64,000 nucleotides of DNA from assembly GCF_036010485.1 (NCBI RefSeq), contig NZ_CP108568.1, positions 5,728,501 to 5,792,500 on the forward strand, read 5' to 3'. The position numbers were made by a program, and so were the translations under genes. This document shows positions 10,642 to 31,373 of the stretch, in pieces; positions within the stretch are counted from its first letter, which is position 1; each line of letters begins with the position of its first letter. The notes under the pieces are model-generated. The model saw nothing but the letters and a program-made list of their open reading frames with translations, ran no database searches and had not been told where the DNA came from. This DNA comes from Streptomyces sp. NBC_01198. Lineage in GTDB: Bacteria > Actinomycetota > Actinomycetes > Streptomycetales > Streptomycetaceae.

Positions 10642-11541
10642 TCAGCCCTTGACGGCGCCGGTGAGCACGCCCTTGCTGAAGTGGCGCTGGACGAACGGGT
10701 AGACGACCAGGACCGGGACGATGGAGATCACCAGGATCGCCATCTGGATGGCGGTCTGCGGCGGGAGCGACGAGCCCGCGGCGCCCACCTGGTCCACGCC
10801 CAGTGAGGTGTTGTTGACGACGTAGGTGCGCAGCACCAGCTGCAAGGGCCACTTGGAGTTGTCGTTGAGGTACAGCAGCGCGCTGAAGAAGGAGTTCCAG
10901 TAGCCGACGGCGTAGAAGAGGCCGATCACCGCGAGCACCGCGCGGCTCAGCGGCAGGACGATCCGCCACAGCACGGTCCAGTCGCCGGCCCCGTCGATGC
11001 GGGCGCTGTCGAGGAGTTCGCGCGGCAGCTCCATGAAGAACGCGCGCACGATCACCACGTTGAAGGCGTTGACCATGGCGGGCAGGATCAGCGACCAGTA
11101 GCTGTCCAGCAGCCCCAACTGCTTGACCACCAGGTAGCTGGGGATGATGCCCGGCGTGAACAGCAGCGCGAAGAGCACGGTCATGAGCAGCGGGCGGTGG
11201 GCCACCGAGTCGGTGCGGCTGAGCCCGTAGGCCAGCAGCGTGGTCGACACCAGCGACAGCGCGGTGCCCACCACGGTGACCAGCAGGCTGATGACCACGG
11301 CCCGGGTGACCACGCCGCCGGACAGCACGGCCCGGTAAGCCGCGAGGTGCACCCCGTGGGGCAGCAGCACGAAGCCGCCGTTGCCGGTGATCTCCGCGCG
11401 GTCGGCGAGGCTGGTGGAGAAGATGCCGACGAAGGGGATCAGCACCGCCGCGCAGCACACGGTGAGGATCACGGTCTTGACGGTCCTGCCGAGCAGGGTG
11501 GGCCGGCCGATGTGTGCCGGGCCGAGCGTGTTGCCGGTCAT
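10642..11541 (-). CDS. Carbohydrate ABC transporter permease (CUT1, LplC/MalG type)
   Basis: 299 residues with six predicted membrane helices and the inner-membrane ABC permease EAA loop (ELPRELLDSARIDGAGDWTV) that docks the ATPase. It should form the heterodimeric channel with the permease encoded just upstream. The two permease genes overlap by four bases (11538-11541), showing translational coupling. A gap of about 130 bp separates it from the binding-protein gene. There is no ATPase gene in the operon. Confidence 0.93.
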   Translation of the reverse strand: MTGNTLGPAHIGRPTLLGRTVKTVILTVCCAAVLIPFVGIFSTSLADRAEITGNGGFVLLPHGVHLAAYRAVLSGGVVTRAVVISLLVTVVGTALSLVSTTLLAYGLSRTDSVAHRPLLMTVLFALLFTPGIIPSYLVVKQLGLLDSYWSLILPAMVNAFNVVIVRAFFMELPRELLDSARIDGAGDWTVLWRIVLPLSRAVLAVIGLFYAVGYWNSFFSALLYLNDNSKWPLQLVLRTYVVNNTSLGVDQVGAAGSSLPPQTAIQMAILVISIVPVLVVYPFVQRHFSKGVLTGAVKG

Positions 11542-12527
11542 CGCTGGTAGATCCCCTGTTCACCGAGCCGGTGGGCGACCTTGTTGGCGCCCAGCACCAG
11601 CAGCAGGCCCACGACGCCCTTGACGAGCCCGACCGCCGCCGAGGCGCCCCAGTCGCCCTGCTGGATGCCGTTGTTGAAGACGTAGGTGTCCAGCACCTCG
11701 CTGGCGCCGATGCCCACTCCGCCCTGCTGGAGCACGATCTGCTCGAAGCCGACGGTCAGGGACTCGCCGAGCCGCAGGATCAGCAGCAGGACGATGATGC
11801 TGCGCAGCCCCGGCAGCGAGACGTGCCATATCCGCCGCCACCGGCTCGCACCGTCCACCGCCGCCGCCTCGTAGAGGCCCGGGTCGATACGGGACAGGGC
11901 CGCGACGAAGAGGATCATGGACCAGCCGGCGTCCTTCCACAGCACCTGCGCGGTGATCATCTCCTTGAACACCGCGGCGTTTCCGACGACATGGACGGTG
12001 CCGATGTCATGGCTGCGCAGGAAGGTGTTGAGCAGACCGGCGTCGCCCAGCATCTGCTGGAAGATCGCGACGACGATGACCCAGGACAGGAAGTGCGGCA
12101 GGTAGAGGATGCTCTGCACGGTGCGCTTGACCCGCTCCGAGACCATGCTCTCCAGCATCAGCGCGAGCCCGACGGGGATCGGGAAGGCCACCAGCACCTG
12201 GAGCAGGGTGATCTCGACCGTGTTCTCCAGGGCGTTGACGAACGCGGGGTCGCCGTTGAAGATCACGTCGAAGTTGCGCAGGCCGGACCAGGGGCTGCCG
12301 TTGGTGCCGAGATAGGGCTGGTAGTCCTTGAAGGCGATGACGTTCCCGAGCAGCGGCAGGTACTGGAAGATCAGCAGCAGGGCGATGCCGGGCACGGTGG
12401 CGATCAGGAGCACCCGGTCGCGCCTGAGCCGCTGGCGCAGGGTCATCCGGCGGGGCTTCGCGGTTGCGTGGATGCGGTCGGTCGCGGGGTCCGCCGGTCT
12501 GGTGCCTGTCGGTCGGGTGGTCTGCAC
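11538..12527 (-). CDS. Carbohydrate ABC transporter permease (CUT1, LplB/MalF type)
   Basis: 329 residues. A cytoplasmic basic N-terminus precedes a first helix (LIATVPGIALLLIFQYLPLL), then further helices and the permease EAA loop (LYEAAAVDGASRWRRIWHVS). This is the partner of the LplC-type permease encoded by the next gene, which it overlaps by four bases. The 5' neighbour (DUF6807 gene) ends 13 bp upstream, consistent with a single operon. Confidence 0.93.
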   Translation of the reverse strand: MQTTRPTGTRPADPATDRIHATAKPRRMTLRQRLRRDRVLLIATVPGIALLLIFQYLPLLGNVIAFKDYQPYLGTNGSPWSGLRNFDVIFNGDPAFVNALENTVEITLLQVLVAFPIPVGLALMLESMVSERVKRTVQSILYLPHFLSWVIVVAIFQQMLGDAGLLNTFLRSHDIGTVHVVGNAAVFKEMITAQVLWKDAGWSMILFVAALSRIDPGLYEAAAVDGASRWRRIWHVSLPGLRSIIVLLLILRLGESLTVGFEQIVLQQGGVGIGASEVLDTYVFNNGIQQGDWGASAAVGLVKGVVGLLLVLGANKVAHRLGEQGIYQR

Positions 12528-12540
12528 GGTGCACGCTCCC

Positions 12541-13530
12541 TCAGCCGGACGGCGTCGTCGCGCCGGCGGCCGCCAGCGACGCCGTCGCGGCCTCGGCCAG
12601 CTTCTCGGTGCCGGCCCGCCCGCGGTCGCCGTCGGCGATGGCGACGGCGTAGCGCCGGGTGAGGGTCTCGCCGTCCTCGACGGTCACTTCGGTGTCGAAG
12701 AAGGGCGCGGGGCACACGCACGCGAAAGGCGTGGCACGGACGAACCACGTGACGTGCTCGCCGCCTGGTTCGTTGCCGGCGGCGTCCACGAAGGCGAGGG
12801 TGGAGGACCGTCCGTGGTCGTCGTGGCGTCCGGTGAAGCCGAGCCAGGGCGCGCGGACGCCCATCAGGTCGTCGCCGCCGGTGGCGTCCGGGGTGTGGAC
12901 GGTGCCGCCGGTGAAGGACCGGGGGCCGCGCCAGAACAGGCCGCCGTAACCGGCGTTCTCCCGGCCCTCGGTGGTCGGGCTGCCGATGACCGTACGGGTG
13001 CCCCGCACGTTGGTGATCGCGGTCTCGAAGACCAGCACCCACGCGTCCTCGTCCGGCAGCACCTCCACGGCGAACCTGCGGGACTCGGTGAACCAGGGCT
13101 GCCCGTGCTCGGTGTGCCAGCGCAGCCGCTCGGCGACCTGCAACCGGCCCCCGGTCAGGGAGAGTTCGTCGAAGCCCTCGTGGTCCATCGACCCGTTGTT
13201 GTCGAACTGCCCGTATCCGGTGCCACGCCGGTAGGTGGCGCCACCCCAGAAGTTCTCGGTCTCCACGTTGGGCAGGGACAGCGAGATCCCCTTGTGCCAG
13301 ATGTGGTCGTGCGGGCGGTAGATGCTGACCAGGTCGCCGCCGAGGGTGCGTAGCGGGTGGAAGTACGGTCGGGGGGACTCCAGTTGGTCGTCCCAGGGCC
13401 GGTATACGTAGCGGGTCAGCGGACGTCCCTCGAAGCTGATCCGCAGCGAGGTGTCGAGTTCGTGGTCGACCGCCAGGCCGGAAGGGGCGGGCTCGGTGCT
13501 GGGCGCGTACGGCCTCTGACGGGCATTCAC
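12541..13530 (-). CDS. PmoA-like protein (DUF6807)
   Basis: 329 residues, beta-sandwich-type protein of the PmoA/DUF6807 family, often found in glycoside-utilisation operons of actinomycetes and Bacteroidetes. Recognisable blocks include YRPHDHIWHKG near residue 70, NFWGGATYRRGTGYG, and a central WRGPRSFTGG. Its biochemical role is unproven; histidine-rich HDHIWH could bind a metal or sugar. The GTG start at 13530 overlaps the stop of the upstream Gfo/Idh gene by four bases (GTGA), so the two are translationally coupled. Together with the oxidoreductase and transporter it suggests processing of an imported, possibly oxidised or modified, carbohydrate. Confidence 0.85.
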   Translation of the reverse strand: MNARQRPYAPSTEPAPSGLAVDHELDTSLRISFEGRPLTRYVYRPWDDQLESPRPYFHPLRTLGGDLVSIYRPHDHIWHKGISLSLPNVETENFWGGATYRRGTGYGQFDNNGSMDHEGFDELSLTGGRLQVAERLRWHTEHGQPWFTESRRFAVEVLPDEDAWVLVFETAITNVRGTRTVIGSPTTEGRENAGYGGLFWRGPRSFTGGTVHTPDATGGDDLMGVRAPWLGFTGRHDDHGRSSTLAFVDAAGNEPGGEHVTWFVRATPFACVCPAPFFDTEVTVEDGETLTRRYAVAIADGDRGRAGTEKLAEAATASLAAAGATTPSG

Positions 13531-14654
13531 AGGGTCGTCTCCTGGACTCGGGCGGCGGGCGGGGCGGACGTCCACGGGGCGCCGCCGCCGTGCATACGCC
13601 GGTAGAAGGGGCTGCCGTCGCCGATCTCGCCGCGCCGCACCGGGCGCCGTTCGAAGGCGGAGGCGTAGGTGGCCGCGACGAATTCGAGCGTGCCGCGGGA
13701 CTGGGGCAGGGTCACCGGCGGCGGTGATCCCGCCTCCAGGGCGTCGAGGACCGCCGCGAACTGGGCGCCGTGGCCGGACGGCCGGCCGCTGGGCCCGGCC
13801 TGCCAGGCGGCCGTGACCGCGTCCTCGTGCCCGGGGGCGGGGTGGACGCGCCAGTCGTCGTCGCCGTAGCCGTAGAGGTGCTCGACCTCGACCGTGGCGT
13901 ACTCGAAGTCGAAGCGCAGATAGCTGGTCTCCCGTGGCGACAGCAGCGAGTTGACCACCGTGGCCACCGCCCCGCCGGCGAAGGTGGCCACGGCGCACGA
14001 CACGTCCTCGGTGGCCGTGGGCCTGGCCAGCCGGGCGGCCACGGCACTGATCTCCTGCCACTCGCCGAGTACGGACAGCAGCAGGTCGAACTGGTGGATG
14101 CCGTGGCCCATGGTCGGCCCGCCGCCCTCGACCTCCCACTTGCCGCGCCACGGCACGGCGAAGTAGTCGTCCGGGCGGTACCACAGCGTGTGGCACACGG
14201 CGACCAGCGGACGGCCGAGCGCTCCGGAGGCCATCGCCGTACGAAGCCGCTCTGCGCCGGAGCCGAAGCGGTGCTGGAAGACGGTGGCGAAGGACGCGCC
14301 GCCGGATTTCTGCGCCGCCGCGATCTCGTCGATCTCGGCCAGGCTGAGGGCCGGCGGCTTCTCGCACAGCACGTGCGCCCCCGCGCCCAGCGCGGTCAGC
14401 GCCTGCTGCCTGTGCAGCCCGGGCGGTGTGCACAGGTGCACCAGGTCCGGACGTGCGTCGGCCAGCAGCGTCTCCAGGTAGCGGTGGCGCCCTGGCACCT
14501 CCCAGCGGTCACAGAAGGCGTCGAGACGTTCCTGGTCGATGTCGGCGGCCGCCACCAGCCGTACGCGGTCGCCGAGCCCCGCGAGATTCTGCGCGTGCAC
14601 CGCTGCGATGCCGCCGGTTCCGACGACGGCCACGCGGAAGGTCCTGCCGGGCAC
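13527..14654 (-). CDS. Gfo/Idh/MocA-family oxidoreductase
   Basis: 375 residues. An N-terminal Rossmann fold with GTGGIA at 12-17 binds NAD(P), and CEKPP at 97-101 carries the conserved catalytic Lys of the family. A C-terminal alpha/beta substrate domain follows, with the His of GHGIHQFD in the expected region. Family members oxidise or reduce sugars, inositols and amino sugars. It is the first gene of the leftward sugar operon. The upstream gap holds two palindromes that are likely LacI-type operators. The specific sugar is unknown. Confidence 0.92.
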   Translation of the reverse strand: MPGRTFRVAVVGTGGIAAVHAQNLAGLGDRVRLVAAADIDQERLDAFCDRWEVPGRHRYLETLLADARPDLVHLCTPPGLHRQQALTALGAGAHVLCEKPPALSLAEIDEIAAAQKSGGASFATVFQHRFGSGAERLRTAMASGALGRPLVAVCHTLWYRPDDYFAVPWRGKWEVEGGGPTMGHGIHQFDLLLSVLGEWQEISAVAARLARPTATEDVSCAVATFAGGAVATVVNSLLSPRETSYLRFDFEYATVEVEHLYGYGDDDWRVHPAPGHEDAVTAAWQAGPSGRPSGHGAQFAAVLDALEAGSPPPVTLPQSRGTLEFVAATYASAFERRPVRRGEIGDGSPFYRRMHGGGAPWTSAPPAARVQETTL

Positions 14655-14687
14655 CCATGCCTCCAGCTCATCCGAGGCGCGTTTCAG

Positions 14688-14699
14688 CGTTTCGAAACG
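14688..14699. promoter_or_regulatory. Candidate LacI-type operator (perfect 12-bp palindrome)
   Basis: CGTTTCGAAACG is a perfect palindrome 33 bp upstream of the first gene of the sugar operon, and it has the central CG typical of LacI-family operators. The LacI gene at the far end of the operon is the obvious candidate to bind it. Confidence 0.6.
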
Positions 14700-14825
14700 G
14701 TCGGAGTTCGATCGGAAACTTTGCTGGCCAGGAAGCTACGTCCGGGCTGTCCCACCGTCAACACCTTGCACACGATCCACCCGACGGGCTCGTGGAACAC
14801 GCAGGTCCGCGCTGTTCCTGGCGTT

Positions 14826-16749: not shown

Positions 16750-16841
16750 GGGTGTTGCCCCCAGGGGTGATCTCGCGAGCGGGGCACAAGTGTAGGACTT
16801 TTAGCGCGACATGACTGGATGTCAGGCGTAAGGTGCACGGC

Positions 16842-18689
16842 ATGGAGGCCGAGGGGGGAGTCGGTATCGGGTCCTCCCTGGCGACGCCGTCCTGGGCGGT
16901 GCGTATCCGGCGGGCCAACGGGACGATCGCGGGCAGCGGGATTCTGCTGAGCCCAGACCGGGTGCTGACCTGCGCACATGTGGTCGGGCGGGACGAAGAG
17001 GTCACCGCGGAGTTCGTCGGTGCGGCCGGCTTCCGGGTGCCTGAGGTGCCCGCCAGGGTCGCGGGGGACGCCTACCGCCCCAAGCAGCGGGACAACAACG
17101 GCGACCCCATCGGCGACGTGGCGCTGCTCGAACTGGACCGGCCGCGGCCGGCCGGCGAGGCGACCTCGCTGCACCGGGTGTCGGCGCCCGGCCGCGAGGT
17201 GCGGATGTACGGCTTCCCCGCCGCGTACAACGGCGGACTGTGGCTGCCCGCCACCATCCTTGGCGGCTGCGGCCGGGACGGCCAGGTGCAGTTGCGGCCG
17301 CCCAGCCCAGCGGAGGTGGCCAGGCCGGGGTTCAGCGGCGGCGGGGTGGTGGACCTGGCTACCGACCGGGTCATCGGCATGGTGGTGGCCAGCGCGCCGG
17401 AGGAGGGCGCCGGCTGGTCGTTCATGAGCCCCGCCGAGACCGTGCTGCGGCACCTGGACGAGGTCGGCGAGTGGACGGTGGGGCCGACCGCGGTCGACGA
17501 GGAACTGCGCTCCGCCGCGTCCGGCGACGACGAGTCGCCGCTCGACCAGCCGTTCGCCGAGCGGCTGGCGCACTGGCTGCGCGGCGACGGCACCGCCCGC
17601 CAGGTCAAGATCAGCCTCGTCCCCGACGACGACGCGGTGCGCGCGGCCACCCTGCGCCGCGCGATCACCCTGGCCGACCGGGAGTTACGCAGCCGCTTCT
17701 CCACCGGGCGCCCGTCGCTCGACGCGCCGGGGACCATACCGGCGGCCGGCGGCCTCGACCTCGCCGTCTACGCGACCGGCCGCACCACCGACCACGTCGC
17801 CGACCGGATCGCCGGGCGGATGGGGCTGTGGCAGCACCCCGAACTGCCCGCCGCGCAGCGCATCGCGGCGGCCAAGGTGACCATCACCCTGGTCGTGGAC
17901 GGTGTGGACGCCGCCGTGGACCCCGGGTCGCTGATCGACCTGCTGGCGCTGCTGGTCGCCCGGGGCAGCCGGGTATTGCTGGTCTTCCGCACGGCCGGCG
18001 ACCATTTCGCCCGCGCCCGGGAGGAGTTGGTGCTGCGCCCGGCGCAGGAGCGCCGCACGCGGCTGTGGGCGCGGCTGGAGCGCATCGCCGGGGCGCCCGC
18101 CAAGGAGCTGGACCACCTGATGGCCCGGGTCTCCGGCGCCGAGGAGCTGACCGACAAGGCTGTCGACGCGCTGGTCCATGTGATCGCCTCCCGCACCGAA
18201 CTGCGGGCAGCCCATGGTGCCTTCGCCGGAGCGCTCGACGAGGGCCCCGACCTGACGCGCTACGAGCGCGTGGCGGCCCGCGCCGAGCAGCACCTGCAGG
18301 CCGCCATCACCGCGCTGCACGAACTGCTGCGCCGCCGCGAGGAGTTGCGCGGGGTCCTCGGCCCGTACCGGCGGCTCTACGAGGAGAGCGCCGCGCGCGG
18401 CGAGAACCTGGAGGCCGACGCCGTCTATGTCGCCGCCTACGAGATGGTGCGCGAGCGGCCCTGCGACGTGCCGGCCGCCGAGGTCGCGGTCCGCCGCTTC
18501 CTCGACCTCGTGGACCGTCCGGACCGGCCGCCCGCCGGCGACACCGGAGCCCCGCCGGAACCGGACCGCCAGCAGGACCGCCAGCAGGACCGCCAGCAGG
18601 ACCGCCAGCAGGACCGGCAGCAGAGCCAGGCCGAGGACCGGGCACATGACCGCGACGGCGACCGCGACGGAGGAGGTACGCCGACATGA
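16842..18689 (+). CDS. Trypsin-like serine protease with large C-terminal effector-type region
   Basis: 615 residues. Residues 15-200 are a trypsin-like peptidase with an intact triad: H46 (TCAHVV), D92 (GDVALLELD) and S165 (PGFSGGG). No signal peptide or membrane segment is seen, so it should act in the cytoplasm, as in trypco-linked conflict systems. Residues 240-400 contain a segment (VTITLVVDGVDAA then GSRVLLVFRT) recalling the Walker B/sensor region of signalling NTPases, but no P-loop is present. Residues about 450-520 are likely coiled coil. The tail (575-594) is five DRQQ repeats encoded by tandem 12-bp units. The last four bases overlap the kinase start (ATGA), so the two are translationally coupled. 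Likely role: signal-controlled cleavage of a partner. Confidence 0.85.
   Translation: MEAEGGVGIGSSLATPSWAVRIRRANGTIAGSGILLSPDRVLTCAHVVGRDEEVTAEFVGAAGFRVPEVPARVAGDAYRPKQRDNNGDPIGDVALLELDRPRPAGEATSLHRVSAPGREVRMYGFPAAYNGGLWLPATILGGCGRDGQVQLRPPSPAEVARPGFSGGGVVDLATDRVIGMVVASAPEEGAGWSFMSPAETVLRHLDEVGEWTVGPTAVDEELRSAASGDDESPLDQPFAERLAHWLRGDGTARQVKISLVPDDDAVRAATLRRAITLADRELRSRFSTGRPSLDAPGTIPAAGGLDLAVYATGRTTDHVADRIAGRMGLWQHPELPAAQRIAAAKVTITLVVDGVDAAVDPGSLIDLLALLVARGSRVLLVFRTAGDHFARAREELVLRPAQERRTRLWARLERIAGAPAKELDHLMARVSGAEELTDKAVDALVHVIASRTELRAAHGAFAGALDEGPDLTRYERVAARAEQHLQAAITALHELLRRREELRGVLGPYRRLYEESAARGENLEADAVYVAAYEMVRERPCDVPAAEVAVRRFLDLVDRPDRPPAGDTGAPPEPDRQQDRQQDRQQDRQQDRQQSQAEDRAHDRDGDRDGGGTPT
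18564..18623 (+). repeat. Five tandem 12-bp repeats encoding DRQQ
   Basis: Unit GACCGCCAGCAG, repeated in frame five times (the last with one base changed), near the end of the protease gene. It encodes a charged, glutamine-rich tail and is a likely site of slippage-based length change in multiples of four residues. Confidence 0.9.
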
Positions 18690-21190
18690 CCGCGCCCGGC
18701 GCCCCCTGCCCGCACTACCCCTGCAAGGGCGCCATCCGCCCCTCCGGTTACTGCGGCACCTGCCACCGCCACCCCTCGACCGCGCCCGGCTCGGCCACCG
18801 CCCCCGCGCGCCGGACCACCGGCCCGGCGACCGTACCGGGCCCGCGTGCCGCGCCGCCGGCGGTGGACGCGCAGGCGGTGCCCCGCCCGACCGCGCCGGT
18901 CGGCGCCCTCGACCCCGACGGCCTGGTCCGGCTGCCCCGCATCCCGCGCCCCGACGACGACGACGTCGTCCGCTCCACCGCCCGCCGCCCCGAGGGCGGC
19001 AGGCGCTGCGGCATGCCGGAGTGCGGCGGCACCATCGGGCTGTCCTACGAGCCCGACGAGCCCGACCCCGACGAGGGCTTCTGCCCGCTCTGCGGCACCC
19101 CCTACTCCTTCCGCCCGCAACTGGGCCCCGGCGACGTGGTCGCCGGGCAGTACAAGGTGCTGGGGTATCTCTCGCCCGGCGGCACCGGCTGGGTCTACCT
19201 CGCTGAGGACCTCGACCTGCCGGGCCAGCGGGTGGTGCTGAAGACGCAGATCAACACCCGGGACGCGGCGGCCCGCCGCAAGGCCGTCGAGGAGCGCCGC
19301 TCGCTGACGACCCTGCACCACCCGGACATCGTCGGGATCATCGCGTCCAAGCAGCACCAGGTCGAGGGCGACACCGAGCCCACCGACTACATCGTCATGG
19401 AGTACGTCGCGGGCCGCCCGCTCGACCAGCTCATGCGCGCCGGCGAGGAGGAGCTGACCGGGCTGTTCGGCGAGCCGTTCGCGTTCGACCACGTCGTCAC
19501 CTACGGCTGCAAGATCCTCGGCGCCCTGGAGTACCTGCACGACCAGGACCTGCTCTACTGCGACATGAAGCCGGAGAACGTCATCCACTACGACCGGCAG
19601 ATCAAGGTCATCGACCTCGGCGCGGTCCGGCGTATCGACGACCGCACCAGCGCCCTGGTCCACACCCCGCGGTTCGCACCGCCCAAGCGGGAGCGCGACG
19701 AGCGCGGATTCCTGGTCGACACCGACCTGTTCACCGTGGGCCGCACGCTGGCGGAGCTCGCCAAGCACGCCAAGGAGCCCGCCGGGCTCGCCGCCCGGTC
19801 CTTCGAGCGGCTGATCGGCCGCGCGACCCATGCCGAGCCCGCGGCCCGCTTCACCTCGGCGCCCCAGATGTCCCGCCAGCTGTGGGAGGTGCTGCGCGAG
19901 CACCGCGCCCTGGACCGGGGCGAGCGCCACCCGGAGCGGTCCACCCGCTTCGAGCCGACCGCCGTCGTCTTCGGCGCCGCGCTGGGCACGGTGCCCGCGC
20001 TCAGCCACTGGACGCTGCGGCCGGTGGGCGCCGCGCCGCCGGACCTGGCCACCGTGGCGCCCGGCCCGCAGGAGACGGCCCGGGCGCTGCCGGGGCCGAT
20101 CGCGGACCCGGACGACCCCGCGGCGGTGCTGCTCGGCGGACTGGCGGGCGACGCGCCGGAACGGACGGCGGAGCGGGTACGCGAGGATCCCACGCTGGGG
20201 ACCGTCGAGGTCGCGCTGTGGCTGTGCCGGTCGTATCTGCTGGCCGGCGAGCCGGGCGCGGCGGGCGAGCCGGCCCGAGCGGAGGCGGAGCGCTGGCTGG
20301 CCGAGGCGGTCCGGATGATGGGCCCCGACGTCGCCGGCTACGACTGGCGGCCGCCGTGGCACCGCGGGCTGCTGCACCTGATGCGCGGCCAGGTCAAGGA
20401 CGCGCAGGGCGAGTTCGCCGTGGTCTACGCGACGGTGCCGGGGGAGTGGGCGCCGAAGCTGGCGCTCGGCTACTGCGCGGAACACCTCGCCAACGCCCTC
20501 GCGGCGCAGGGCCCGGCGGTGGAGCCCGACACGGAGCCGTCGGCGGCGGAGGCGGAGCGGCGGGAGGCCGCCAGACAGGCGGCGCGGGCGGAGGCCGAAG
20601 CGGAGGCCAAGGCGTACTACCTGGCCGTCTGGGAGCGCGACCGCGCTCACACCAGCGCGGCCTTCGGGCTGGCCAGGCTGCGGCTGCTGCACGGCGACCG
20701 GGCCGACGCGGTGCGGGTGCTGGACCAGGTGCCGACGACCTCCCGCAACTACGACCTGGCCCGGATCGCCGCCCTGCGGACCCTCACCGGGTGGGTGGTC
20801 GGCACGGCGCCGTCGGCGGCCGACCTCAGGGCGGCCGCCGACCGGCTGGCGGAAATGCCGCACGACGACGCCCGGGACCGGTTGGTCGCCGAGATCCGGG
20901 AGAACGTGCTGGCCGGCCATCCGGCCACCGACCGCTCCGCCCCCTGGCGCACCCGGCTGGCCCTCGCGGTCACCCCGGGCGGATCCGGTCGCGGCGCCGC
21001 CCCGGCTCCCGGCGAGCCGGACTTCCCGCAGCTGCCGCCGGGGGAGCTGTTCGGGGGTGCGAACAGCCGCCGGGCGCTGGCCCAGTTGCTCTACGGGTCG
21101 CTGCGCACGCTCGTCGGCCGGGCGCCGGAGGGCGAGCGCGCGGAACTGCTGGACCGGGCCTACGCCGTACGCCCGCTGAGCCGATTCTGA
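18686..21190 (+). CDS. PknG-like serine/threonine protein kinase
   Basis: 834 residues with the architecture of mycobacterial PknG. An extra N-terminal four-cysteine cluster (C8, C13, C23, C26) precedes a disordered linker. Next come a rubredoxin-like module (C108, C113, C133, C136), a kinase domain (about 150-400) with K186, E203, catalytic D293 in YCDMKPEN and DLG at 310-312, and a C-terminal TPR region (about 480-790). The C-terminus ends in a VRPLSRF-like motif as in PknG. The APE motif is changed to APP. Mycobacterial PknG controls the TCA cycle and glutamate metabolism through GarA/OdhI and is driven by GlnX-GlnH nutrient sensing. Here it sits between a protease and vWA/membrane sensor genes. 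The start ATG overlaps the protease stop. Confidence 0.92.
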   Translation: MTAPGAPCPHYPCKGAIRPSGYCGTCHRHPSTAPGSATAPARRTTGPATVPGPRAAPPAVDAQAVPRPTAPVGALDPDGLVRLPRIPRPDDDDVVRSTARRPEGGRRCGMPECGGTIGLSYEPDEPDPDEGFCPLCGTPYSFRPQLGPGDVVAGQYKVLGYLSPGGTGWVYLAEDLDLPGQRVVLKTQINTRDAAARRKAVEERRSLTTLHHPDIVGIIASKQHQVEGDTEPTDYIVMEYVAGRPLDQLMRAGEEELTGLFGEPFAFDHVVTYGCKILGALEYLHDQDLLYCDMKPENVIHYDRQIKVIDLGAVRRIDDRTSALVHTPRFAPPKRERDERGFLVDTDLFTVGRTLAELAKHAKEPAGLAARSFERLIGRATHAEPAARFTSAPQMSRQLWEVLREHRALDRGERHPERSTRFEPTAVVFGAALGTVPALSHWTLRPVGAAPPDLATVAPGPQETARALPGPIADPDDPAAVLLGGLAGDAPERTAERVREDPTLGTVEVALWLCRSYLLAGEPGAAGEPARAEAERWLAEAVRMMGPDVAGYDWRPPWHRGLLHLMRGQVKDAQGEFAVVYATVPGEWAPKLALGYCAEHLANALAAQGPAVEPDTEPSAAEAERREAARQAARAEAEAEAKAYYLAVWERDRAHTSAAFGLARLRLLHGDRADAVRVLDQVPTTSRNYDLARIAALRTLTGWVVGTAPSAADLRAAADRLAEMPHDDARDRLVAEIRENVLAGHPATDRSAPWRTRLALAVTPGGSGRGAAPAPGEPDFPQLPPGELFGGANSRRALAQLLYGSLRTLVGRAPEGERAELLDRAYAVRPLSRF

Positions 21191-21273
21191 CCACTCCGAC
21201 CGGCAGGCCCCCTCGACACGCACCACTCGCGGCAACGGCAACAGCAGCTCATCGGAAGGGAGTCACGGGCACC

Positions 21274-22698
21274 GTGGACACCACGATCGGCCTCGCGGTC
21301 AGCCAGCAGAAGTACCTCCCCGCCGGCTCGGGGGAGAAGGAACTGCACGCCATCGTGACCGTCGAGGTCAGTGGCGCGGACGGCGCCACGCCCGGGCCCG
21401 CGCTCTCCGAGGTCCTGGTGGTGGACTGCTCCAGCTCGATGGACCGTCCGGAGGAGAAGTTCCGGGCGGCAAAGAACGCCGCGATCGCCGCGCTGAGACT
21501 GCTGCCCGACGGCACGCCCTTCGCCGTCGTGGCCGGCACGCAGTTCGCCGTCCTCGCGTATCCGCCGCCGAGCGGCGGCCGGACGGCGATGGCGGTGGCC
21601 GACGACCGGACCCGTGCGGAGGCGGAGACCGCGGTACGCCGGCTGGTGGCGGCCGGCGGCACCAGCGTCGGGAACTGGCTGCACCTGGCAGGGCAGCTGC
21701 TCACCGTGCAGGGAGCGCCGATCCAGCACGTGCTGATGCTCACCGACGGGCGCAACGAGCACGACCACTTCCGCCCGCTGGCGGACGTACTGACCGCGGC
21801 GGCGGGGAAGTTCGTCTGCGACGCCTGGGGCATCGGTGAGGACTGGGACGCCCAGCTGCTGCTCGCGGTGGCCCGCGCCCTGCACGGCAGCGCGGACGCC
21901 GTCCACCGCGAGTCCGAACTCGTCGAGGCCTACGAACAGTTGGTACGCGGCCTGCTCGCCAAGGCGGTCCCGGAGCTGACCCTCACCGTGGAGCCCCTGC
22001 CCGGCAGCACGCTGCGTTACGTCCGGCAGACCTTCCCCACCGAGGCGCCGCTGGCGGCGGAGGCCGGCGCACCGGGCACGTACGTCACCCGGGCGTGGGG
22101 CAACGAAGTGCGCCGCTACCACGTCTGCCTCGCGGTGGACCCCGAAGGGCAGTTGCAGGGCGAGGAGTTGCTGGCCGCCGAGATCGGCCTCAGCGCCCCG
22201 CCCGAGGCCGGCCTCCGGCGGCCCGACCCGCTGCCGCTGGTGGTGCACTGGACCGACGACCCGACGCTGTCCGGGATGACCGACCAGCAGGTCGTGCACT
22301 TCCAGCTCTACGAACAGCTCGGCGAGGCCGTGGCCGAAGCCTCGGCCGCCTACCACGGCGGCAGGAAGGAGCTGGCCACGCAGCACCTCGGCATGGCCGT
22401 GGCGCTCGCGCACCAGGCCGGCGCGCGCCGCCAACTCGCGGAACTGCGGCGGCTGGTGGAGATCCACGACCTCGCGAAGGGCGAGGTGTCGCTGCGCGAC
22501 GGCCTCAAGGCGGTGGACTTCGAGCACCTGATCACCGCGGGCAGCCACAGCACCTACGGCCCGGAGCGCGGCGGTGCCGCGGCCGATCCCGGCGTGCAAC
22601 TGGGCGCGGCCCTGACGTCCTGCCCGGCCTGCCACCGGCGGATCCCGGCGAGATCCCGCTTCTGCCCGCGCTGCGGGCGGGCGTTGGGGGAGTCATGA
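21274..22698 (+). CDS. vWA-domain protein with C-terminal zinc ribbon
   Basis: 474 residues. A von Willebrand A domain spans about 40-230 with the metal-site motif DCSSS (51-55) and a later MLTDGRNEHD. A beta-rich middle region follows, then a helical segment (about 345-400). The C-terminal zinc ribbon has C450, C453, C464 and C467 (CPACH, CPRCG). No signal peptide or membrane helix is seen. vWA proteins usually assemble partners through metal-dependent binding, so this is a plausible scaffold linking kinase, protease and membrane sensor. The GTG start at 21274 lies 13 bases after a GAAGGGA site. Its stop overlaps the next start by four bases (ATGA). Confidence 0.85.
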   Translation: MDTTIGLAVSQQKYLPAGSGEKELHAIVTVEVSGADGATPGPALSEVLVVDCSSSMDRPEEKFRAAKNAAIAALRLLPDGTPFAVVAGTQFAVLAYPPPSGGRTAMAVADDRTRAEAETAVRRLVAAGGTSVGNWLHLAGQLLTVQGAPIQHVLMLTDGRNEHDHFRPLADVLTAAAGKFVCDAWGIGEDWDAQLLLAVARALHGSADAVHRESELVEAYEQLVRGLLAKAVPELTLTVEPLPGSTLRYVRQTFPTEAPLAAEAGAPGTYVTRAWGNEVRRYHVCLAVDPEGQLQGEELLAAEIGLSAPPEAGLRRPDPLPLVVHWTDDPTLSGMTDQQVVHFQLYEQLGEAVAEASAAYHGGRKELATQHLGMAVALAHQAGARRQLAELRRLVEIHDLAKGEVSLRDGLKAVDFEHLITAGSHSTYGPERGGAAADPGVQLGAALTSCPACHRRIPARSRFCPRCGRALGES

Positions 22699-24971
22699 GC
22701 GAGAACACCGTCCAGGACGAGGCGACAGCGCCGCCGGCGGCGGGACCGAGCGGGACGCTGCGCGAACTGACCCGGCGCAGGCTGGTGTTGCTGGCCACGG
22801 TGGTGCTGACCACGCTGGCGCTCTTCCACGCCTACCGCGGGGTGCACTCCGACGCGGTGCCGCTGCAGCGCTACAGCGCTCCCGGCGTGCTGGCGGTCGA
22901 CACCGCCATGGACGCGCTGACCAAGGCCCAAGAGGGCCTCGCGCCCGACGAAGGCACCACCAGTGACTTCCACACCCGGATCTCGGTGGCCCACCAGAGC
23001 CTCGCCCGGGCCGCGGCCGCCGACGTCACCGGGCTCAGCGGACGCCAGACGATCCAGACGGTGACCGGCCTGATCGCCACCTACTCCGGCTGGATCGAGG
23101 ACGCCCAGGCCGAGAGCGCCGGCAGCCAGCCCTCGGCGGCCGGGAAGGAGCCGAGTCCGCTGCCCGCGGCCTTCCAGGACTACGCCGGCAGCGTGCTCCA
23201 GGGTGACGCCGACAGCCCCACGGACGCCAGCGTGATCGAAAGGCTCAAGGCGCTGCAGAGCGAGCAGCAGAAGGTGGTGCGCGAGCAGACCGACTTCGGA
23301 CCGCTGCTGTGGCTGGAGTGGGGCGTCGCCCTCGCCCTGGTCCTCGGGCTGCTCGTGCTGCTCGCCGAGGCGCACCGCTTCTCCGGCGCGCGCTTCCGGC
23401 GGCAGTGGAATCCGGCACTGCTGGGCGCGGCGGTGCTGCTCGTCGCGGGCACCGCCGTGCTGGTCGTCTTCACCGTGCTGACGCACTCCGGGCTGGCCGA
23501 CGCCCGCGCCGCGCTGGCGACGTCGCCGACCGGCGACGGGATACCGCGAGCCGGAGCCGAGGTCTCGCGCCGGCTGGCGGGCACCGGCTTCCGCGCGGCG
23601 GCGGCCTACTGGATCCTGGCCGGCGGGCCGCTGCTCGCGGCGTTCGTCGTGCTCGGCCTGCAACCGCGGATCAACGAATACCGCCTCAAGGTCGTCGTAC
23701 TGCGCCGGCCCCGGCCCCGTTCGCTGGGGGTGCTCGCACTGTGCCTGGTGGTGCTGGCCGGCGGCGGCGCCGTCGTCGTGCAGGCCACCGGCTGGAACGG
23801 CTCGGTCACGCTGCTTGCCAACTGGACCGGAGGCGAACAGGAGGAGTTCCAGCGCCTGGTGATCGACAAGTTCGAGCACAAGTACCGGATCCACGTGGTC
23901 TACCAGGGCAGTTCGGCCGAGAGCCAGGTGCTCGCCGCCGACGTCGAGTTCGGCACGCCGCCGGACGTCGCCGTCCTGCCCGGCCCCGGCGAACTCGCCG
24001 GATTCGCCGCCAAGGGCATGCTCACCCCGCTGGACGACCTGGTCCGCGAGGCCGACTTCGGCTCGACCTGGGTCACCCCGGCCATCGGCGCCGACGGGAC
24101 GACGCACGCGTACTGGCTGCCGATCAAGACCGACCTGAAGAGCATGGTCTGGCACCCGCAGGGACAGGACGACACGGAGGTCGAGAAGGCCGCACGGCAG
24201 CCCGGCGCCTGGTGCCTCGGCATGGGCAGCGACGCCACCTCCGGATGGCCGGGCTCCGACTGGATCGAGGACATCCTGCTCCAGCAGACCGACCAGGACA
24301 CCTACACGCAATGGGTGAACGGCGAGGTGCACTGGAAGGACGACCGCGTCCGCACCGCCTGGCAGACCTGGGGCAAGCTCGTCGGTGCCGGCGACCCGAG
24401 ATACACCGTGCGCGCCCTGAAGACGAACTTCGGCGACGCCGCCGAGGGCGCCGGCAGCAAGCCGCCGACCTGCGGTCTTGAACACCAGTCGTCCTTCGCC
24501 CGCGGCAGCGTCGGCTGGCGCGAGGCCGGCGGAGCCGCGTACGTGCACTCCGCCAAGGTCATCCCGGGCGCCTCGGCAGACAGCAACCGCTGGGAGGTCT
24601 CCGGTGACCTCGCCGCCGTCCTGCACAGCACCCCGCAGTCCCGCAAGCTGATCGGCTACCTCGCCTCCGACGAGGCCCAACGCGCTCGAATCGGCACGCA
24701 GACCGGCTTCTCCGTCGAGCACACCGTGCTGGCCGACTACCCGGACACCGGTGTGATCGGCGAGATGGCCGACACCCTGCGCAGCCCGGGCGCGGTCCGC
24801 TGCTACGACGCCTCCGACGCGATGCCGCCCCAGGTCCGGGACGCCTTCGCCCTCGCGGTCCTGCGCTACCTCGCCGATCCCACGACCCTCGACCGCCAGC
24901 TCGCCGAGCTCGACAGGGTCACCGACACCCTCGGCAAAAGGGCGCCCACCTCGGTCTGTTCGCAGGGCTGA
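22695..24971 (+). CDS. Membrane sensor: GlnX-like helices fused to an extracellular solute-binding domain
   Basis: 758 residues. Predicted helices lie at about 30-47, 203-225, 240-263, 301-323 and 343-364. With a cytoplasmic N-terminus this puts a helical region (48-200), a loop (264-300) and the whole C-terminal part outside. Residues about 369-758 are an extracellular solute-binding protein of the sugar type (FDKFEHKY-like start, PPDVAVLPGPGEL, then CLGMGSDATSGWPGSDWIED). There is no lipobox; the domain is tethered by the fifth helix. In mycobacteria, PknG is controlled by separate GlnX (membrane) and GlnH (binding lipoprotein) proteins. Here both functions appear fused in one protein, with a sugar-type rather than amino-acid-type binding domain. 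It overlaps the vWA gene by four bases and ends the operon. Confidence 0.85.
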   Translation: MSENTVQDEATAPPAAGPSGTLRELTRRRLVLLATVVLTTLALFHAYRGVHSDAVPLQRYSAPGVLAVDTAMDALTKAQEGLAPDEGTTSDFHTRISVAHQSLARAAAADVTGLSGRQTIQTVTGLIATYSGWIEDAQAESAGSQPSAAGKEPSPLPAAFQDYAGSVLQGDADSPTDASVIERLKALQSEQQKVVREQTDFGPLLWLEWGVALALVLGLLVLLAEAHRFSGARFRRQWNPALLGAAVLLVAGTAVLVVFTVLTHSGLADARAALATSPTGDGIPRAGAEVSRRLAGTGFRAAAAYWILAGGPLLAAFVVLGLQPRINEYRLKVVVLRRPRPRSLGVLALCLVVLAGGGAVVVQATGWNGSVTLLANWTGGEQEEFQRLVIDKFEHKYRIHVVYQGSSAESQVLAADVEFGTPPDVAVLPGPGELAGFAAKGMLTPLDDLVREADFGSTWVTPAIGADGTTHAYWLPIKTDLKSMVWHPQGQDDTEVEKAARQPGAWCLGMGSDATSGWPGSDWIEDILLQQTDQDTYTQWVNGEVHWKDDRVRTAWQTWGKLVGAGDPRYTVRALKTNFGDAAEGAGSKPPTCGLEHQSSFARGSVGWREAGGAAYVHSAKVIPGASADSNRWEVSGDLAAVLHSTPQSRKLIGYLASDEAQRARIGTQTGFSVEHTVLADYPDTGVIGEMADTLRSPGAVRCYDASDAMPPQVRDAFALAVLRYLADPTTLDRQLAELDRVTDTLGKRAPTSVCSQG

Positions 24972-27924: not shown

Positions 27925-28758
27925 ATGCTCCCCACGTTCGTCATCGGACTCCGCGAAGGACTGGAGGCTGCCCTCATCGTGGGCATCATCGCCTCCTTCC
28001 TCGCCCAGCAGGGCCGCAGGGACGCGCTGAAGAAGGTGTGGCTGGGCGTCGCCATCGCGGTGGCGATCTGCGTGGCGGTCGCGATCGGACTGCAGATCTA
28101 CTCCAGCGACCTGCCGCAGAAGCAGCAGGAGCAGCTGGAGACGGTCATCGGCGCCATCGCCGTGGTGATGGTCAGCTACATGGTGCTGTGGATGAAGCGG
28201 CACTCCCGCGACCTGCGCAAGGACCTGGAGGGCGCGGCCGGCCGCGCCCTCACCGAGGGCTCGGCCTCCGCGCTGGTGCTGATGGCCTTCCTCGCCGTGC
28301 TGCGGGAGGGCTTCGAGACCTCGGTCTTCCTGCTGGCCACCTTCAACGCCAGCGGCAACGCGAAGTACGGCGGCACCGGTGCCGCGCTGGGCGTCGCGCT
28401 GGCCGCGGTCGTCGGTTACGGCATCTACCGCGGCGGCGTCCGGCTCAACCTCTCGCGGTTCTTCCGCGTCACCGGCCTGGTGCTGATCCTGGTCGCCGCC
28501 GGCCTGGTGTCCACCGCGCTGATGACCGCAGCCGAGGGCGGCTGGCTGGAACAGGGCACCCGGGCCTTCGACCTGACCTGGCTGGTGCACCCCAACACCC
28601 CGACCGCCTCGGTGGTCACCGGCGTGCTCGGCATCCAGCCGTTCCCCGACTGGACGATGGTGATCGGCTGGCTGGTCTACGCGATCCCGATGGCCGCCGT
28701 CGTCCTGTGGCCGGCCCGCCCGCGCAAGGCCCGCGCCCCCCAGCCGGTCACCGGCTGA
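27925..28758 (+). CDS. efeU: Iron permease EfeU (FTR1 family)
   Basis: 277 residues, seven predicted helices. The two REGxE iron-binding motifs of the oxidase-dependent iron transporter family are present: REGLE at 10-14 and REGFE at 127-131. It is the inner-membrane channel of the EfeUOB ferrous/ferric uptake system. First gene of the operon; its ATG lies 34 bp beyond the tandem iron boxes. The EfeO gene follows after about 50 bp. Confidence 0.95.
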   Translation: MLPTFVIGLREGLEAALIVGIIASFLAQQGRRDALKKVWLGVAIAVAICVAVAIGLQIYSSDLPQKQQEQLETVIGAIAVVMVSYMVLWMKRHSRDLRKDLEGAAGRALTEGSASALVLMAFLAVLREGFETSVFLLATFNASGNAKYGGTGAALGVALAAVVGYGIYRGGVRLNLSRFFRVTGLVLILVAAGLVSTALMTAAEGGWLEQGTRAFDLTWLVHPNTPTASVVTGVLGIQPFPDWTMVIGWLVYAIPMAAVVLWPARPRKARAPQPVTG

Positions 28759-28811
28759 CCCGCCGCACGACTTCCCGCCCCCCTTCCGTAAACCCCCAAC
28801 AGGAGCTGACC

Positions 28812-29993
28812 GTGAACCCCCGAGCCACCCGCCGCCGCGCCCTGGCCTGCGCGGCCACCGTGATCACCGCAGGCCTGATGCTGACCGCCTGCGGCGGCGG
28901 CAAGGACGACTCGAAGGGCTCCGCGCCCGCCAACGCCGAGAACGCCGACGCCAAGTCCTCCACCGTCAAGATCGTCATCAGCGACAAGGACTGCGCCCCC
29001 GCCCCGGCGACCGTGCCCGCGGGAACGGTGAAGTTCGACGTCAGCAACAAGGACTCCGGGCGGGTCACCGAGGCCGAACTGCTCGACGGCGGCAAGATCC
29101 TGGGCGAGAAGGAGAACCTGACGCCCGGCCTGTCCGGCGACTTCACCCTCAACCTGGACGCCGGCAAGTACCAGGTCTACTGCCCCGGCGCGAAGACCGA
29201 GAAGACCGCCTTCACCGTCACCGGCACCGCGAAGAAGACCTGGAAGGACGACCCGGCGCTGGTCACCGCCACCCAGCAGTACGCGACCTGGGTCACCGGC
29301 GAGGTCAGGGAACTGGTCAGCGGCACCGACGCGTTCACCGCCGCGGTCAAGGCAGGCAAGACCGACGAGGCCAAGACCCTCTACGGCAAGGCCCGTATCC
29401 ACTACGAGCGCATCGAGCCGACCGCCGAGACCTGGAGCGACATCGACGGCCGGATCGACGGCCGCATCGACGACGCCGCCACCGCCGCCGACTTCACCGG
29501 CTTCCACCGCATCGAGCAGAGCCTGTGGGAGAAGAACTCCACCGACGGACTGGGCAAGCTCGCCGACCAGTTGAGCGCCGACGTGCACGAGCTCTACACC
29601 AAGGTGCAGAGCGTGGAGTACCAGCCGGCCGCGATCGCCAACGGCGCGACCGATCTGGTCAACGAGATCCAGTCCTCCAAGATCACCGGGGAGGAGGAGC
29701 GCTACTCGCACATCGACCTGCTGGACTTCGACGGCAACCTGGCCGGTGCGAACGAGGCGGTCACCGTGCTGCTGCCGGTGCTCAAGGCGAAGGACCCGAC
29801 GCTCGCCACCACCGTCGGCCAGCGCTACCAGGCGACCGCCGACGCGCTCAAGGCGTACGCGGCCACGCCCGGTTACGAGGACAGCGGCTACGTCGACTAC
29901 CGCAAGGTCACCGACGCCCAGCGGCGCGTCCTGGCCCAGGCGGTCGACGCGTACGCCGAGTCGGTGTCCAAGATCGCCGGAAAGATCGCCTGA
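28812..29993 (+). CDS. efeO: EfeO iron-binding lipoprotein with cupredoxin and M75 domains
   Basis: 393 residues. The signal peptide ends in a lipobox (MLTAC, Cys27), so the protein is anchored outside the membrane. A cupredoxin-like domain (about 45-135) is followed by the M75 imelysin-type domain (about 150-393) with the HxxE motif in GFHRIEQSLW, a metal site. EfeO binds and passes iron (and perhaps copper-linked redox equivalents) to EfeU. The GTG start at 28812 follows AGGAGCTGACC. It is the middle gene of the efeUOB operon. Confidence 0.93.
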   Translation: MNPRATRRRALACAATVITAGLMLTACGGGKDDSKGSAPANAENADAKSSTVKIVISDKDCAPAPATVPAGTVKFDVSNKDSGRVTEAELLDGGKILGEKENLTPGLSGDFTLNLDAGKYQVYCPGAKTEKTAFTVTGTAKKTWKDDPALVTATQQYATWVTGEVRELVSGTDAFTAAVKAGKTDEAKTLYGKARIHYERIEPTAETWSDIDGRIDGRIDDAATAADFTGFHRIEQSLWEKNSTDGLGKLADQLSADVHELYTKVQSVEYQPAAIANGATDLVNEIQSSKITGEEERYSHIDLLDFDGNLAGANEAVTVLLPVLKAKDPTLATTVGQRYQATADALKAYAATPGYEDSGYVDYRKVTDAQRRVLAQAVDAYAESVSKIAGKIA

Positions 29994-29996
29994 CTC

Positions 29997-31373
29997 GTGA
30001 CCACCCCCGACGACCCCGCAGAGGGGCCCCAGGAGCCGGCCGCACGGGACACGCGGAGCCAGGACGGCGCCCCCGACATCACCCCGGAGCGGGCCCCGCA
30101 CGCCTCCGGCCCGGCACCCGCTGCCGTCAGCCGGCGGCGGCTGCTCGGCGCGGTCGGCGCGGGGGCGGCGGTCGCCGGTGCCGCCCTCGGTGCGGGCGGC
30201 AGCGCACTGGCCGGCCGCGACAACGGTTCGGGCTCGCACGCCCCGGCCGGCCACCCGGCGGCCGCCACGGTCGACTTCCGCGGCGCCCACCAGGCCGGCA
30301 TCGCCACCCCGTCCCAGGACCGGCTGTGCTTCGCGACCTTCGACGTGGCGCCCAACGCCACCCGCGCCGATCTGGCCGCGCTGCTCACCGCCTGGACCGC
30401 CGCCGCCGAGGCGATGACCCTGGGCCACCCGGTGCCGGGGGACGAGGGCGACCTCAACACCCCGCCGGACGACACCGGCGAGGCGGTCGGCCTGACCCCC
30501 GGCCGGCTCACCGTCACCGTCGGCTATGGCCCGGCGCTCTTCGACGACCGCTTCGGCCTCGCCGGCCGCCGCCCCACCGCCCTCAAGCAGCTGCCGCAGC
30601 TGCCCGGCGAGAACCTGGACCCGTCGGTCACCGGCGGTGACCTGTGCGTCCAGGCCTGCGCCGACGACCCGCAGGTCGCCTTCCACGCGGTACGCAACCT
30701 GCGCAGGCTCGGCTTCGGCACCGTCCTGCCGCGCTGGATGGAGCTGGGCTTCGGGCGTACGTCGTCCACCACCCCGCAACAGGCCACCCCGCGCAACCTG
30801 ATGGGCTTCAAGGACGGCACCCGGAACATCGACGCCCGCGACGAGACGGTCATGGGCCAGCACGTGTGGATCGGCGAGGAGGAGCCGCAGCGCTGGATAC
30901 GCGGCGGCGCCTACCTGGTGAGCCGCAAGATCCGGATGCGGATGGAGCAGTGGGACCGCGACCGGCTCGGCGACCAGCAGGACGTCTTCGGCCGCTACAA
31001 GGGCAGCGGCGCCCCGCTGACCGGGCACGGCGAATTCGACACGCCGGACTTCGCGGCGAAGTCCGGCGGGGAGTACGTCATCCCGGACGACGCCCACATC
31101 AGGCTGGCCTCGCCCGAGAACAACAAGGGCCTGCGCATCCTGCGGCGCGGCTACTCCTACACCGACGGAATCGACAAGGCGACCGGCGACCTGCTGGGCG
31201 GGCTGTTCTTCATCGCGTTCATGAACAGCCCCGACCGCTTCGTCACCCTCCAGCGGGTGCTGGGCGCGCACGACGCGCTCAACGAGTACATCCAGCACAT
31301 CGGCAGCGGCGTCTTCGCCGTGCCGCCCGGCCTCGCCGCCGGGCAGGACTGGGGGCGCCAGCTGTTCGGCTGA
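29997..31373 (+). CDS. efeB: EfeB, Tat-exported dye-decolourising-type haem peroxidase
   Basis: 458 residues. A twin-arginine signal (RRR at 46-48, then LLGAVGAGAAVAG) exports the folded haem protein. The mature part is the DyP-type peroxidase fold with GFKDGTRNI (the catalytic Asp of the GxxDG-like motif) and a distal arginine region. EfeB proteins have peroxidase activity and have been reported to act on haem or to oxidise Fe2+ before uptake by EfeU. The GTG start lies three bases beyond the EfeO stop, so it is coupled. Confidence 0.93.
   Translation: MTTPDDPAEGPQEPAARDTRSQDGAPDITPERAPHASGPAPAAVSRRRLLGAVGAGAAVAGAALGAGGSALAGRDNGSGSHAPAGHPAAATVDFRGAHQAGIATPSQDRLCFATFDVAPNATRADLAALLTAWTAAAEAMTLGHPVPGDEGDLNTPPDDTGEAVGLTPGRLTVTVGYGPALFDDRFGLAGRRPTALKQLPQLPGENLDPSVTGGDLCVQACADDPQVAFHAVRNLRRLGFGTVLPRWMELGFGRTSSTTPQQATPRNLMGFKDGTRNIDARDETVMGQHVWIGEEEPQRWIRGGAYLVSRKIRMRMEQWDRDRLGDQQDVFGRYKGSGAPLTGHGEFDTPDFAAKSGGEYVIPDDAHIRLASPENNKGLRILRRGYSYTDGIDKATGDLLGGLFFIAFMNSPDRFVTLQRVLGAHDALNEYIQHIGSGVFAVPPGLAAGQDWGRQLFG

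What the first reader, a model, noticed from the sequence alone, without database searches (positions are those of the whole stretch)
22695..24971. Membrane helices fused to a sugar-type binding domain: GlnX and GlnH functions in one protein
In mycobacteria GlnX (membrane) and GlnH (lipoprotein) are separate and sense amino acids for PknG. Here one 758-residue protein has five helices followed by an outside binding domain, and that domain resembles sugar-type (family 1) binding proteins rather than the glutamine type. It should directly couple a different ligand class to the kinase. The binding domain has no lipobox, so its tether is the fifth helix.
Basis: partly seen in the sequence, partly recalled or inferred. 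Interest (0 to 1): 0.7.

Follow-up and report, generated by a model that had tools for sequence, protein, structure and literature searches.

The report
Membrane sensor fused to sugar-type receptor
In this soil bacterium the membrane relay that in relatives passes a signal from a separate outside binding protein to a protein kinase has become one protein with a sugar-type binding domain of its own, a fusion that related bacteria appear to have made several times independently.

Summary
ORF 22695-24971 (+) encodes 758 aa: a GlnX-like half (four helices, one outside bundle), a fifth helix, and an outside family-1 (sugar-type) solute-binding fold (AlphaFold pLDDT 91.7; nearest solved fold the galactose receptor AcbH, Z 36.5). 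It is the last gene of a protease / PknG-like kinase / vWA / GlnX-SBP operon. Ligand class and kinase coupling remain inference. A new variant of a known kind.

The parts
22695..24971 (+). GlnX-like/SBP fusion protein, 758 aa
22779..22835 (+). transmembrane helix 1 (residues 29-47)
   Evidence: helix 20-51 in the model
22836..23303 (+). outside helical bundle P1 (residues 48-203), part of the stretch that matches GlnX
23304..23360 (+). transmembrane helix 2 (204-222)
23415..23471 (+). transmembrane helix 3 (241-259)
23472..23597 (+). 42-residue outside loop in place of GlnX's second bundle (about 153 aa in C. glutamicum)
23598..23654 (+). transmembrane helix 4 (302-320)
23664..23684 (+). PRINEYR motif (324-330); its counterpart RLxEYR is the C-terminus of canonical GlnX; here an inner loop
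23685..23696 (+). fusion point; close split relatives have a [AG]TGA stop/start overlap near here
23724..23780 (+). [quoted passage not shown]
23796..24968 (+). family-1 solute-binding domain (368-758)
21262..22698 (+). vWA protein with C-terminal zinc ribbon, same operon (start codon assumed)
18686..21190 (+). PknG-like Ser/Thr kinase (rubredoxin, kinase, TPR), paralogue of the canonical PknG
16833..18689 (+). trypsin-like protease; C-terminal region without a Pfam match

Best explanation
A one-piece transmembrane receptor of a second, PknG-type signalling operon. The outside SBP domain closes on a small ligand, most likely a carbohydrate. Because it is covalently held by helix 5 next to the single helical bundle P1, closure shifts P1 and the four GlnX-type helices, and the inner loops, above all the one with PRINEYR, change the activity or recruitment of the PknG-like kinase of the same operon through its TPR domain. 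Shown by computation: architecture, predicted topology, homology to GlnX, SBP fold, operon, and the mix of split and fused relatives. Inferred: direction split-to-fused, sugar as ligand, closure-driven signalling, the PRINEYR loop as contact to the kinase, and the kinase as output.
For: GlnX homology: profile-profile 99.5%, E 2.4e-22 over the bundle and helices 2-3. SBP fold: model pLDDT 91.7, pTM 0.87; best PDB chain AcbH, Z 36.5, rmsd 2.7 over 358 residues; a sequence profile of the domain also puts AcbH first, E 6e-12. Positive-inside rule puts the SBP outside. PknG-like kinase found upstream in 94 of 111 fetched loci, including 13 of 13 fused ones; order protease-kinase-vWA-GlnX-SBP in 76 of 76 loci where all five were found. 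GlnX and SBP distances correlate, Spearman 0.79 over 108 loci. Fusion arose repeatedly: five changes on the tree, a single origin rejected. In published models GlnX is the relay from GlnH to PknG (PMC9769921, PMC6069109, passages).
Against: No ligand, topology or kinase assay exists for this protein. NCBIfam's GlnX model gives 52 bits against a cut-off of 250; plain BLASTP to the genome's own GlnX finds nothing significant. The bundle that holds the docking site proposed for GlnH in C. glutamicum is absent here. The same fold also binds non-sugars: a dinucleotide-binding protein is among the matches. The kinase's APE motif reads APPK in the window and varies among relatives. The GlnX-SBP correlation may reflect shared ancestry alone. 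Among 96 split relatives 44 lack the EYR motif by the pattern used. Fold search with the GlnX half alone gave no match at E <= 0.001.
Confidence: 0.67

Rival explanations
1. The fusion exists only at translation: a signal peptidase cuts after helix 5 and the two halves work as separate proteins, as in the split relatives.
For: Residues after helix 5 read VVVQA-T, a possible type I signal peptidase site (my reading; no predictor was run). The possible fusion L117 still carries a lipobox-like SVYAC after its fifth helix.
Against: Helix 5 is a strongly hydrophobic 19-residue stretch, the highest of the five at 2.66, more like an anchor than a cleaved signal; the close split relatives also lack a lipobox; repeated fusion suggests that covalent linkage is tolerated or useful (inference).
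Confidence: 0.15
2. The SBP domain no longer binds a small ligand and serves as a structural or protein-docking module.
For: The operon itself has no permease gene, so transport does not explain the domain's upkeep.
Against: The fold is predicted intact, and motifs such as GWPG[ST]DW and C-x-DASDAM are conserved in relatives of about 40-60% identity; this fits a kept binding site, but also a kept fold core.
Confidence: 0.12
3. Ordinary ABC-transporter receptor that happens to be joined to a membrane protein; its job is uptake.
For: The domain is closest to transporter receptors.
Against: In 94 of 111 loci a PknG-like kinase gene lies upstream; the attached half matches the GlnX relay, and Pfam finds no permease domain in it.
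Confidence: 0.06

Closest known systems
GlnX (NCBIfam NF058618; C. glutamicum and mycobacteria)
   Same: four helices with N-terminus inside (predicted here), first outside helical bundle, EYR motif after helix 4, operon with a PknG-type kinase
   Different: second bundle missing, extra fifth helix, binding domain attached, 52 bits against a cut-off of 250
GlnH (SBP family 3 lipoprotein)
   Same: outside solute-binding domain tied to a GlnX-type relay
   Different: family-1 fold, no lipobox, fused; the genome's family-3 GlnH lies in another locus
AcbH (galactose) and other sugar SBPs of family 1
   Same: fold, Z 36.5 over 358 residues for AcbH
   Different: 10-18% identity to the matches listed, membrane-fused, in a kinase operon
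Single-chain SBP-kinases such as MSMEG_1200, and SBP-linked Streptomyces kinases SCO1468 and SGR_4432 (named in PMC6069109, passage)
   Same: SBP proposed as sensor for a Ser/Thr kinase
   Different: there SBP and kinase share a chain or are neighbours; here the SBP is joined to the relay and the kinase is a separate gene. I did not test whether SCO1468 or SGR_4432 belong to this cassette.
Actinobacterial GAP1-N2 systems (PMC7159879, passages)
   Different: no GAP1-N2 or PP2C gene was seen among the four cassette genes; the passages name neither PknG nor solute-binding proteins. Kinship not tested.

Membership tests
GlnX (NF058618) | score over the curated cut-off of 250 bits | tested here: not met
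   52.2 bits, residues 86-274
GlnX (NF058618) | homology by profile comparison with canonical GlnX | tested here: met
   99.5%, E 2.4e-22, residues 53-268
GlnX (NF058618) | four helices, N-terminus and tail after helix 4 inside | tested here: met
   prediction only; published topology from passages
GlnX (NF058618) | two outside four-helix bundles | tested here: not met
   second outside segment is 42 residues
GlnX (NF058618) | RLxEYR tail (noted here, not a published definition) | tested here: inconclusive
   8 of 8 canonical loci end in it; window has RINEYR, with Ile for Leu and internal
GlnX (NF058618) | transmits to PknG | not testable with these tools
   operon linkage only
GlnH | SBP_bac_3 domain | tested here: not met
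   of Pfam SBP families only SBP_bac_1 exceeds its cut-off; SBP_bac_3 is not listed at E 0.1
GlnH | lipobox | tested here: not met
   none seen in or after helix 5
SBP family 1 (PF01547) | Pfam score over cut-off and SBP fold | tested here: met
   42 bits against 26
SBP family 1 (PF01547) | binds a carbohydrate | not testable with these tools
   fold and sequence similarity only
PknG (operon kinase 18686-21190) | rubredoxin, kinase and PknG_TPR domains over cut-off | tested here: met
   40.0/28.5, 78.9/31.7, 142.3/27 bits

The most novel reading that the evidence does not exclude
The cassette is not a nutrient circuit but a separate actinobacterial signalling or conflict system: an outside carbohydrate-type signal is read by a GlnX-SBP receptor and passed through a PknG-derived kinase to an inside protease and vWA protein. 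The repeated GlnX-SBP fusions then fix the receptor at one SBP per GlnX and show that P1 alone suffices as the SBP partner, while the conserved RLxEYR tail is the unknown contact of GlnX with PknG.
Probability: 0.2. Interest if true: 0.75.

Novelty: new variant of a known kind. Interest (0 to 1): 0.52.

Why it matters
How GlnX hears GlnH and how it speaks to PknG are open; PMC9769921 calls the mode of interaction with PknG 'still elusive' (passage). A natural fusion fixes the partner, the stoichiometry and the geometry on the outside, and the lack of the second bundle together with the kept EYR motif narrows which parts can matter on each side. It would also show that PknG-type signalling is not confined to amino acids.

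Tried and rejected
Chance or wrong frame: rejected (open antisense frame noted; third-position G+C and homologues decide). Assembly error: unlikely, because full-length homologues in one frame occur in eight other genomes of the genus. One origin of all fusions: rejected by AU test; the test for the nine fused rows of the genus was set up after seeing the tree, so its p value is only indicative. The tree is a quick IQ-TREE with SH-aLRT support, no bootstrap. The first automatic lipobox rule took mid-helix Cys for lipoboxes and was replaced; L106 was then still miscalled and was set to lipoprotein by eye (counts). L125 and L126 were dropped from the tree (odd or partial SBP). L117 counts as fused by frame only. 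Some fetched loci end at a contig end (for instance L021, L027, L058, L105, L111, L117), so a gene 'not found' upstream there may be cut off. Defence system: PADLOC matches of the kinase cover its kinase domain only, those of the protease are weak (best E 1e-6); none for the fusion or vWA protein. VMAP-type conflict systems (PMC7159879, passages): Pfam lists no VMAP, MoxR or EAD domain in the four proteins at E 0.1. Fold search with the GlnX half: no match at E <= 0.001, inconclusive. Phylum search with the SBP profile hit 83 of 396 genomes, too general to be used. Print: the searches listed no paper whose title or abstract start names a GlnX-SBP fusion or this cassette; apart from the papers named below I saw listings only, so this is no proof of absence. 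Passages were seen in PMC9769921, PMC6069109, PMC8546545, PMC7159879 and PMC12321487, plus section 13 of PMC9769921; no paper was read whole.
Full report
What is there. The frame 22695-24971 (+) encodes 758 residues and begins in the stop codon of a vWA gene (ATGA). The operon on the + strand is: trypsin-like protease 16833-18689, PknG-like kinase 18686-21190, vWA plus zinc ribbon 21262-22698, fusion protein 22695-24971. The first two genes and the last two overlap by four bases. Third-position G+C stays at 0.90-0.98 along the whole fusion frame. The genus is probably Actinacidiphila: two same-genus contigs have the exact lengths of contigs named A. paucisporea (676636) and A. bryophytorum (753629).

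Anatomy. Helices at 29-47, 204-222, 241-259, 302-320 and 344-362. AlphaFold2 with 113 rows gives pLDDT 91.7 and pTM 0.87; the one segment of three or more residues under 50 is 334-340, the fusion linker. By the positive-inside rule the outside segments are 48-203 (a helical bundle), 260-301 (short) and 363-758 (binding domain). Of the domain's cysteines, 507, 703 and 755 are invariant and 593 nearly so in alignment A1; in the wider A3, 507 is invariant, 593 and 703 nearly, 755 not. This would fit disulphides outside.

The GlnX half. NCBIfam GlnX matches at E 5e-14 but far under its cut-off. A profile of 67 window-type halves matches a profile of nine GlnX proteins at 99.5%, E 2.4e-22, over residues 53-268, that is the first bundle and helices 2-3. 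C. glutamicum GlnX has four helices and two outside bundles of about 156 and 153 residues, supported by PhoA/LacZ fusions (PMC9769921, passages; section 13). The window protein keeps the first and has only 42 residues for the second. A short GlnX goes with the kinase cassette: in split relatives the GlnX part, from the start of the model match to the stop, measures 269-369 residues in the 82 loci where at least one of protease, kinase and vWA was found upstream, and 406-452 in the 14 without any. Three of those 14 (L021, L105, L111) are cut short by a contig end.

A conserved GlnX tail. In one search, 8 of 149 sampled genomes had a GlnX at E <= 1e-60; each of these eight proteins, the window genome's own among them, ends in [PR]RLxEYR, and a further GlnX-like gene of the window's genome does too (L128). 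Among 96 split relatives with a GlnX part, 43 have E[YF]R within the last 25 residues, 9 a near form, 44 neither by this pattern. The window protein has PRINEYR at 324-330, right after helix 4, followed by the linker and helix 5. In C. glutamicum the tail is inside. I propose it as the kinase contact; this is inference.

The binding half. SBP_bac_1 at 42 bits; best structural matches are AcbH (Z 36.5), glucose/galactose and xylo-oligosaccharide receptors. A profile search of PDB sequences also puts AcbH first, E 6e-12. Dinucleotide-binding proteins of the same fold are on the list, so the ligand class is not settled.

A second system. All 35 held genomes of the genus have a GlnX over the cut-off, and 34 a PknG TPR. 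The window's genome has GlnX (449 bits), GlnH (SBP_bac_3, 2e-26) and PknG (TPR 1.5e-85) within C1:5480500-5492500. The window cassette is a paralogue. In an alignment of 94 cassette kinases, window included, the catalytic Lys is kept in 93 and the catalytic Asp, Asn and DFG-type Asp in 94; the APE motif is variable, APPK in the window. In 71 aligned proteases His, Asp and Ser of the active site are each kept in 64. A GarA-like FHA protein with an ETTS motif exists elsewhere in the genome; none lies in this operon.

Split and fused relatives. At E <= 1e-30, 112 of 394 genomes of the family match. I fetched 111 loci outside the window. The kinase was found in 94, and in 76 of 76 loci with all five parts the order is protease-kinase-vWA-GlnX-SBP. 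In the tree of 110 SBP domains (109 loci plus the window) 57 are lipoproteins, 39 carry an N-terminal helix without lipobox, 14 are fused. Fused needs five changes, and well supported branches force five: the window's clade of eight, L026, L053/L054, L090/L107 and L117. L117 still has a lipobox-like site and is doubtful, which would leave four. One clade for all fused rows is rejected (p 1e-60); one clade for the nine of the genus is rejected too (p 0.004). Direction cannot be read from an unrooted tree; the split state is that of the published GlnX/GlnH and of 96 of 110 rows, so fusion is the simpler reading. In a separate scan of named genomes (80 loci kept of 532 relatives) 9 are fused: Actinacidiphila paucisporea, A. 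bryophytorum, A. cocklensis, Streptomyces albireticuli, S. olivoreticuli, S. klenkii, S. guryensis, 'Streptosporangium' nondiastaticum and Streptomyces sp. UNOC14_S4. Some of these are the same genomes as in the first set.

How the fusion looks in the window's clade. In six split relatives of the genus the GlnX stop and SBP start overlap, five as ATGA and one as GTGA. Six of the clade's eight fused sequences could be aligned there: five (window, L027, L030, L031, L032) are one base longer than the split ones, which brings the two frames together; L028 has a larger change; L029 and L033 did not match the search pattern. L026, a separate fusion on the tree, has a larger change. In L031 and L032 the old TGA can still be read, out of frame.

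Function. Published work proposes a chain GlnH to GlnX to PknG to OdhI/GarA for aspartate and glutamate (PMC6069109, PMC9769921, PMC8546545, passages). By analogy the fusion would be a receptor with a built-in, sugar-type sensor for its own kinase. No experiment bears on it. PMC6069109 already notes that SBP-linked and SBP-fused Ser/Thr kinases exist (passage), so the principle is known; the relay-SBP fusion, its repetition, and its coexistence with the canonical system I found in none of the listings.

Noticed in passing
L209-L216, L127, L128; window 23664-23684: Each of the 8 canonical GlnX loci examined ends in RLxEYR, a candidate kinase-docking tail; the term EYR does not occur in PMC9769921.
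   Followed up: partly
L128 4643-6046 (own genome C1:7244765-7246042): A third GlnX-like gene (183 bits, under the cut-off), far from both PknG loci, ending in PRLAEYR.
   Followed up: no
window 16833-18689: Trypsin-like protease with conserved catalytic residues and a C-terminal region without a Pfam match; first gene of the cassette.
   Followed up: partly
window 18686-21190: Kinase paralogue with variable APE motif (APPK here) although the other catalytic residues are kept.
   Followed up: partly
L021, L022, L077, L081, L091-L093, L097, L104, L105, L109, L111, L114, L126: Longer (two-bundle-sized) GlnX next to a family-1 SBP with a lipobox, without a detected kinase, vWA or protease upstream: a possible kinase-free form; L021, L105 and L111 are cut by contig ends.
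   Followed up: no
L117 (G345): GlnX and SBP share a frame yet a lipobox-like site remains after helix 5.
   Followed up: partly
window 27925-31373: FTR1 iron permease, imelysin/cupredoxin protein and a Tat-type, DyP-peroxidase-like protein: looks like an Efe iron-uptake operon (last gene and operon named from recall).
   Followed up: no
window 10642-14735 (-): Two genes that look like ABC sugar-type permeases (from recall, not searched) and a GFO/IDH/MocA oxidoreductase on the opposite strand.
   Followed up: no
L158: A record named Streptosporangium nondiastaticum carries a fusion very like that of Streptomyces klenkii (L159) at the junction; its name may not reflect its kinship.
   Followed up: no
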